64,000 bases of DNA. Source: Bacteroidia bacterium (lineage in GTDB: Bacteria > Bacteroidota > Bacteroidia > Chitinophagales > Saprospiraceae). Below the pieces are notes generated by a model that was given only the letters and a program-made list of their open reading frames with translations, made no database searches and was not told the DNA's origin. The stretch lies in contig JAUIKE010000016.1 in NCBI GenBank assembly GCA_030430845.1, forward strand, positions 1-64,000, read 5' to 3'. The position numbers and the translations under genes are program-made. Below, in pieces: positions 21,296 to 22,436 of this stretch (positions are counted from its first letter, which is position 1; each line of letters starts with the position of its first letter).

Positions 21296-21337
21296 GGCAA
21301 GCTTCAGCTTGCCAGGACGGCAAACTTCAGTTTGTCG
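21296..21337. repeat. REP-like palindrome pair, 5' of the RAYT
   Basis: Two small palindromes lie in tandem: GGCAAGCTTCAGCTTGCC (21296-21313) and GGCAAACTTCAGTTTGTC (from 21319), separated by AGGAC. They are the same units found on both sides of the transposase gene and at 55.8 kb. They lie 35 bases after the giant gene's stop and could end its transcript. The stretch 21338-21519 shows nothing else recognisable. Confidence 0.85.
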
Positions 21338-21519: not shown

Positions 21520-21625
21520 ACAAGCTAAAGCTTGCGGTCCTGGCAAGCTGAAGCTTGCTGTCCTGTATCCTACTGGACAGCAAACTTTAGTTTGCCAGGA
21601 GAGCGAACTTCAGTTTGCTCCTCTC
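21520..21625. repeat. REP/BIME cluster upstream of the RAYT gene
   Basis: This cluster holds CAAGCTAAAGCTTG, GGCAAGCTGAAGCTTGC, CAGCAAACTTTAGTTTGCC and GAGCGAACTTCAGTTTGCTC, each a near-perfect palindrome. The two middle units are joined by a short spacer (21560-21576, TCCTGTATCCTACTGGA). The same order recurs at 22337-22436 downstream of the gene. Such paired palindromes flanking a RAYT gene are the expected BIME arrangement. Confidence 0.85.
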
Positions 21626-21681
21626 CTCCAGTGACCTAAACTATTGAGCGCATTCCCAATCACAAACTCAATATTTAAGTC

Positions 21682-22344
21682 GTGAAAAAAGCATACAAAT
21701 ACACTAAGCGCCGCTTACCGAGGCATCTCAATGCCGGATCTATTTATTTTGTCACAGTAATGCTTAAAGGGGCTATACCTAAGTCAGCCATAGATAAACT
21801 GAAAGCAGAATATCAAGAAAAGGTCCGTTTATTAGAACTTACACAGCCAAAAGACTTCAAGCTTAGAATGGCCGTGCTGCAGCAGGAACACCTCAAGAAG
21901 TATGACCAATATCTGGATCAAGTGCTTTACGGGCCGACTTATCTAGCGAAAGCCGAAATTGCCGAGATTGTTAAAGAACAATTCCACCGCTTTGAGGGGG
22001 AATTTTATGATCTGCTTGCCTATACCATCATGCCCAATCATTTCCATTTCCTTATTGATACGAGTATTCAAGTGGTGACCCAAGAGGTAGATCCCGAATA
22101 CATCCAGGAAGACTATACAGATTTATCTGAAATCATGAGACGCATTAAAGGGGCTTCTGCCAGATATGCTAATCTGGCTTTGGATCGGAAAGGAAACTTC
22201 TGGCAACATGAGTTTTTTGACCGAATAATAAGAAGTGAGAAGGGGGAGCAGTTTTGTGTTAATTATATATTGAATAATCCAGTGAAGGCGGGATTGGTGG
22301 AGAAATGGGAGGATTTTCCTCATACTTTTATCAAAACAAGCTAA
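21682..22344 (+). mobile_element. REP-associated tyrosine transposase (RAYT, Y1 family)
   Basis: A 220-residue single-strand transposase of the IS200/Y1 superfamily. The HUH motif is in MPNHFHFLI. The region SARYANLALDRKGNFWQHEFFDRIIR, read in two halves, carries the probable nucleophilic tyrosine (SARY) and the FWQ-E-FDR signature. YILNNPVKAGLV is the typical RAYT C-terminal block. It starts with GTG at 21682. RAYTs are domesticated or non-autonomous-style transposases that act on REP palindromes and usually occur as single genes. Here the gene is framed by REP clusters at 21520-21625 and 22337-22436. It may have inserted between the giant gene and the following OmpA-domain gene. Confidence 0.9.
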
Positions 22345-22436
22345 AGCATGTTTTCCTGGCAAGCTGAAGCTTGCTGTCCGGTAGGATACAGGACAGCAAA
22401 CTTTAGTTTGCCAGGAGAGCGAACTTCAGTTTGCTC
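22337..22436. repeat. REP/BIME cluster downstream of the RAYT gene
   Basis: Starting in the last codons of the transposase, this repeats the order seen upstream: CAAGCTAAAGCATG, GGCAAGCTGAAGCTTGC, CAGCAAACTTTAGTTTGCC, GAGCGAACTTCAGTTTGCTC. The spacer between the two middle units (TCCGGTAGGATACAGGA) is nearly the reverse complement of the spacer in the upstream cluster, while the palindromes keep the same orientation. The first unit is decayed (GCATG for GCTTG). Confidence 0.85.

What the first reader, a model, noticed from the sequence alone, without database searches (positions are those of the whole stretch)
21520..22436. RAYT gene between direct BIME copies with a flipped spacer
The clusters on each side list the same four REP palindromes in the same order. 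The short spacer joining the two middle palindromes is, however, in opposite orientation (TCCTGTATCCTACTGGA versus TCCGGTAGGATACAGGA). RAYTs act on REPs as single strands, and this flip may record how the BIME was copied or inverted.
Basis: partly seen in the sequence, partly recalled or inferred. Interest (0 to 1): 0.6.

Follow-up and report, generated by a model that had tools for sequence, protein, structure and literature searches.

The report
Flipped hairpin loop beside RAYT gene
Two copies of a repeated DNA hairpin flank a bacterial transposase-like gene, and the 11-base loop of one is the reverse complement of the other; the likeliest cause is an ordinary copying slip at a hairpin, not the work of the enzyme.

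Summary
A RAYT gene (21682-22344) lies between two direct, nearly identical four-palindrome REP clusters (21520-21620 and 22336-22436). The 11-bp linker between the middle palindromes is TGTATCCTACT on the left and GGTAGGATACA on the right: 10 of 11 identical when inverted, 6 of 11 direct. Outside the linker the clusters differ at 4 of 90 positions and the inner palindromes are not exchanged, so only the linker is flipped.

The linker sits at the tip of a long imperfect hairpin (9 perfect arm pairs, then three mismatches out to 26). Short inversions at such hairpins are a known product of template switching or break repair. Flipping is not a habit of RAYT loci: the detector fired in 1 of 67 loci (this one; 37 of the 67 had comparable repeats), and 0 of 9 related long-spacer elements are flipped. 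The genome has five head-to-head elements of this kind; their linkers share only a GGTAG-N-CTACC-like core.

Verdict: an isolated minute inversion in a REP element of a known kind. The link to RAYT copying is not supported. One consequence could be tested: the flip moves the only GTAG, guide motif of studied RAYTs, to the other strand.

The parts
21682..22344 (+). RAYT / TnpA_REP gene, GTG start, 220 aa; NHFH at residue 119, WQ at 174, YILNNP at 195
   Evidence: NCBIfam NF047646 87.8 bits against a cut-off of 80; Pfam PF01797 33.9 bits against 23; motifs
21520..21620 (+). Left BIME: two 23-bp-spaced palindromes, linker, two palindromes in inverted orientation
   Evidence: palindromes at 21521-21534, 21544-21557, 21581-21594 and 21604-21617
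22336..22436 (+). Right BIME, direct copy of the left; its first, decayed palindrome (22337-22350) holds the RAYT stop codon (22342-22344)
   Evidence: 91% over 101 bp; stop codon
21564..21574 (-). Left linker TGTATCCTACT; GTAG on the minus strand
   Evidence: coordinates
22380..22390 (+). Right linker GGTAGGATACA; GTAG on the plus strand; inverted relative to the left
   Evidence: 10/11 inverted, 6/11 direct; coordinates
21298..21334 (-). Further two-palindrome unit of the same REP family upstream

Best explanation
The two BIMEs are sister copies of one head-to-head REP element. The centre of each folds as a long imperfect hairpin whose tip is the 11-bp linker. In one copy the linker was inverted in place by a minute inversion confined to the 9-bp perfect inverted repeat TTGCTGTCC/GGACAGCAA: a double template switch between the arms during replication, or break repair by microhomology. 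Shown here: the inversion, the arms, the hairpin potential, and the absence of flips elsewhere. Inferred: the replication or repair step, and which copy is ancestral. RAYT chemistry (cut and rejoin of one strand in the same polarity; established knowledge of Y1 enzymes) is not needed and does not by itself invert a segment in place. Side effect: the single GTAG of the linker moves to the other strand.
For: The linker is 10/11 identical inverted, while 86 of the 90 surrounding positions are identical directly. The inner palindromes are not exchanged. Arms are perfect for 9 bp, with mismatches only at positions 10, 14 and 17 out to 26. The DNA fold puts the linker at the hairpin tip, -33.4 and -31.7 kcal/mol, z -8.55 and -8.33 for the plus strands. 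No flip candidate was found at the other 66 RAYT loci scanned, and 0 of 9 long-spacer BIMEs with the shared spacer are flipped, so it is a sporadic event. [quoted passage not shown] loop inversions in chloroplast DNA (PMC2903610, passages); microinversions always flanked by inverted repeats between human and chimpanzee (PMC8755829, passages).
Against: One event only. At 11 bp it is below the 15 nt that PMC8755829 asks for in a definite microinversion. The perfect arm is 9 bp, while the yeast cases had arms longer than 9 bp. Template switching tends to make arms identical, yet arm mismatches 10, 14 and 17 survive in both copies. With the symmetric GTA/TAC core held fixed the chance probability is 0.016. 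No second strain was available to show both states at one site.
Confidence: 0.7

Rival explanations
1. Independent decay of a symmetric linker. Two head-to-head dimers once each ended in GGTAG, giving GGTAG-N-CTACC; the left copy lost its left GTAG and the right copy its right one, by point mutations that happen to mirror each other.
For: The five head-to-head linkers resemble a GGTAG-N-CTACC core with one degenerate half. Outside the BIMEs, GTAG lies at the same offset after the dimer end in 8 of 76 dimers (11 of 86 with the BIME dimers), so a symmetric origin is likely.
Against: The same changes would have to arise in mirror image: simulated frequency 3.6e-4 or less. The surrounding 90 bp have only 4 differences.
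Confidence: 0.14
2. RAYT-driven copying: the enzyme cuts BIME single strands at or near GTAG and rejoins pieces copied from the other strand, so that a linker ends up inverted.
For: The element flanks a RAYT. E. coli TnpA_REP cleaves and rejoins single-stranded REPs and needs GTAG (PMC8266576, passages). Nunvar et al. propose a BIME-formation model with RAYT cleavage on both strands (PMC2817692, passage).
Against: Arms unmoved; no flips at 66 other RAYT loci nor in 9 long-spacer BIMEs; three of the five head-to-head BIMEs are not next to a RAYT.
Confidence: 0.1
3. Gene conversion by an inverted BIME copy, with a short patch covering only the linker.
For: BIMEs are near-symmetric, so an inverted copy can pair; single dimers occur on both strands.
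Against: No other BIME in the genome has this linker, and the patch would have to end within 9 bp on each side.
Confidence: 0.03
4. Assembly error at an inverted repeat.
For: Draft genome of 396 contigs; two 101-bp repeats 0.8 kb apart.
Against: At k = 21 the left copy shares no word with its own reverse complement, and the right copy shares none with the reverse complement of the left, so usual word lengths separate the orientations.
Confidence: 0.03

Closest known systems
RAYT / TnpA_REP with its REPtron, TnpA_Y1 subclass 2.4 (PMC6006769: section 13 and passages read)
   Same: Y1/HUH protein with NH[IFV]H, WQ and YIxNNP; Bacteroidetes among the listed hosts; gene flanked by its REP family, with scattered copies in the genome
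   Different: In the flanking BIMEs GTAG lies in the linker, not at the foot of a hairpin; [quoted passage not shown]
BIME / REPIN (PMC2817692 section 5 and passages; PMC3116915 and PMC3733652 passages)
   Same: Inverted REPs around a short linker, able to fold as one long hairpin; head-to-head and tail-to-tail forms
   Different: Each half is a tandem of 23-bp units; the linker is only 11 bp
Minute inversions at hairpins / template-switch spacer inversion (PMC2903610, PMC8755829, PMC8604942: passages)
   Same: A short loop replaced by its reverse complement between inverted repeats
   Different: Here seen between two copies in one bacterial genome, at a REP element; shorter than the chloroplast and primate cases

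Membership tests
RAYT (REP-associated tyrosine transposase) | Passes the curated family model | tested here: met
   87.8 bits against 80 for the whole protein. The six-frame genome search gave the same gene 75.2 bits, below the cut-off.
RAYT (REP-associated tyrosine transposase) | HUH motif and single catalytic tyrosine | tested here: met
   NHFH at 119, YILNNP at 195
RAYT (REP-associated tyrosine transposase) | Gene flanked by REPs that are repeated in the genome | tested here: met
   96 pattern sites genome-wide against 3 for the reversed control
TnpA_Y1 subclass 2.4 | NH[IFV]H / WQ / YIxNNP signature | tested here: met
   no tree was built
TnpA_Y1 subclass 2.4 | Long or double-foot REPs with GT[AG]G at the hairpin foot | tested here: inconclusive
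   GTAG lies two bases upstream of the palindrome on 13 of 382 palindrome sides (CTAC 0, GATG 2, GGAT 4); not so in the BIMEs that flank the gene
BIME | Inverted REPs joined by a linker, several copies | tested here: met
   5 head-to-head and 12 tail-to-tail elements found in the stretches held
Hairpin-associated minute inversion | Segment replaced by its reverse complement between inverted repeats | tested here: met
Hairpin-associated minute inversion | Length above 15 nt for a definite call (PMC8755829) | tested here: not met
   11 bp; this lowers the certainty of the call
Hairpin-associated minute inversion | Both orientations at one site in related strains | not testable with these tools
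   one genome per species; no match to the BIME in the 59 relatives searched

The most novel reading that the evidence does not exclude
The linker inversion works as a strand switch: by carrying the single GTAG from one strand to the other it decides which strand of the BIME, and which of its two REP dimers, the RAYT can use. The present state (GTAG on the minus strand left of the gene and on the plus strand right of it) would give the RAYT an inverted pair of usable ends although the arms are direct copies.
Probability: 0.06. Interest if true: 0.5.

Novelty: new member of a known kind. Interest (0 to 1): 0.25.

Why it matters
It gives a clear natural example of a loop inversion within a bacterial REP element, and warns against reading linker orientation as a record of RAYT copying. 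If GTAG guides this RAYT as it guides the E. coli enzyme, such inversions would change the substrate strand in one step, which can be tested with oligonucleotides.

Tried and rejected
Whole-BIME inversion: rejected, because the arms keep their order. Programmed inversion: considered and set aside, because the segment is 11 bp with 9-bp perfect arms; no search for an invertase was made. A general habit of RAYT loci: rejected by the scan within its limits (flipped segments of 8-49 nt, arm matches of at least 11 of 12, ungapped, same locus, same strand). Ancestral state from relatives: none of the 59 relatives searched matched the BIME, so it stays open. Empty-site comparison: the right-hand neighbour gene was found in 7 of the 36 other genomes searched in its family, best 38-39% identical, too distant for a flank comparison; the genus mate was not in that set. 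An orientation rule of GTAG heads around RAYT genes was looked at by eye in L138 and L119 and gave no clear pattern. In one search the raw list of 22 flip candidates contains 20 comparisons of a cluster with its own reverse complement, which are trivial; the other two are the two strands of the one real pair. In one search the one candidate at L119 (upstream flank against the reversed downstream flank) is likewise trivial, since direct repeats with palindromic arms were compared in reverse. In one search the output was cut, so some loci were not seen there; they were rescanned.

Searches for prior reports of linker inversion in REP elements. None of the listed titles or abstract openings reports it; of these papers only passages or single sections were read.

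Full report
What is there. The window is the first 64,000 bases of a 75-kb contig in a 9.1-Mb draft genome of 396 contigs. The gene at 21682-22344 codes for a 220-aa Y1 transposase-like protein. It passes NCBIfam's REP-associated tyrosine transposase model and Pfam's Y1_Tnp, and carries NHFH, WQ and YILNNP. That is the signature listed for TnpA_Y1 subclass 2.4, which is reported as abundant in Cyanobacteria and Bacteroidetes (PMC6006769, section 13 and passages). No tree was built. Of the nine family hits in the genome, this was the only one whose fetched flanks held palindromes of this family.

The two clusters. Left (21520-21620) and right (22336-22436) are direct copies, 91% identical over 101 bp. 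Each has two palindromes 23 bp apart, an 11-bp linker, and two palindromes in inverted orientation. The first palindrome of the right cluster has decayed and contains the stop codon of the gene.

The flip. The left linker is TGTATCCTACT and the right one GGTAGGATACA: 6 of 11 identical directly, 10 of 11 inverted. Differences number 5 of 11 inside the linker and 4 of 90 outside. The inner palindromes differ from each other and are not exchanged, so neither the whole element nor its arms were inverted. Linker and arms form one hairpin in either strand. The perfect arm is 9 bp, and only three mismatches occur in the first 26.

How sure. Unrelated 11-mers would match this well inverted with probability 8e-6. 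Independent decay of a symmetric ancestor reached the pattern in at most 3.6e-4 of simulations. Substitution alone at the observed divergence gave it in 0 of 400,000. The weakest case holds the six symmetric positions fixed and lets five drift, and gives 0.016. At 11 bp the event is below the 15-nt limit that primate workers use for definite microinversions (PMC8755829, passages).

The genome-wide picture. The pattern CAARCTNNAGYTTG has 96 sites against 3 for its reversed control. A search for the linker frame found five head-to-head elements: the two here, one on contig 182 and two on contig 394, the last three with no RAYT hit nearby. Their linkers (TGTATCCTACT, GGTAGGATACA, GGTAGCCTATC, TGTAGGCTATC, AGCGCCTACC) all resemble GGTAG-N-CTACC with one half degenerate. 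Among 86 dimers read out of the loci held, 11 have GTAG at the same offset after the dimer end (usually CTGTCC); leaving out the 10 BIME dimers, 8 of 76, where about 0.3 would be expected at one in 256 (the expectation is my arithmetic). So the linker is probably the junction of two dimers that each ended in GGTAG.

Controls. Twelve tail-to-tail elements were found. Nine share a recognisable spacer, and in all nine the spacer has the same orientation relative to its unlike arms. Across 49 distinct REP clusters of this genome the only flipped pair was the one reported (1,099 oriented pairs had an unflipped middle, both strands counted and self-pairs not removed). Relatives of the RAYT were collected from 60 genomes of relatives, 398 of the family and 395 of the phylum, the own genome counted in each. 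In the 67 RAYT loci scanned, the window's included, one flip was found, the window's own; 37 of the 67 held comparable repeat pairs. The loci scanned are those for which the tools laid DNA; weak hits L123-L135 and L140-L141 and the many rows without a locus were not scanned. None of the 59 relatives matched the BIME itself.

Mechanism. A flip confined to the loop of a hairpin is a known kind of mutation. [quoted passage not shown] A RAYT cuts and rejoins one strand; inverting a segment in place needs sequence from the opposite strand. That, the unmoved arms and the absence of flips at other RAYT loci make a replication or repair slip the best explanation (0.7). The step itself is inferred.

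Consequence. E. coli TnpA_REP uses single-stranded REP but not its complement, and GTAG is essential for it; in other systems the motif matters less (PMC8266576, passages). The flip carries the only GTAG from one strand to the other. Whether this RAYT reads that GTAG is not known: in the rest of this REP family GTAG lies two bases 5' of the palindrome on 13 of 382 sides, a different place from the linker GTAG. Hence the low probability given to the strand-switch reading.

Noticed in passing
L057:1388-1568, L024:1423-1624 and other loci of G000: A longer repeat carries the REP dimer between two small hairpins, GATTGGCG-TTTAATTTTTAAC-CGCCGAAT on the left and GATTAGGCG-CTTATTTTTTTAA-CGCCAATC on the right (15 and 13 copies by pattern). 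The hairpin arms mirror each other, but the loops are T-rich on the same strand in both halves; whether this is another loop inversion is unclear in such simple sequence.
   Followed up: partly
L011:1463-1621, L039:1486-1732, L017:1213-1420: Tandem arrays of several 23-bp REP units (palindrome plus TTTCCTGG-type spacer), suggesting that unit number changes by slippage.
   Followed up: no
22337-22350: The stop codon of the RAYT gene lies inside the first palindrome of the right BIME, so the REP supplies the end of the reading frame.
   Followed up: partly
L136 (G000:C165:27006-27662): A second RAYT, 58% identical, is flanked by palindromes of quite different sequence (ACATCCTTCAGGATGT type), consistent with one REP family per RAYT.
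   Followed up: no
L114 (G002:C69): A related RAYT is preceded by seven near-identical 31-bp units of one palindrome and then four units of another, with different repeats downstream.
   Followed up: no
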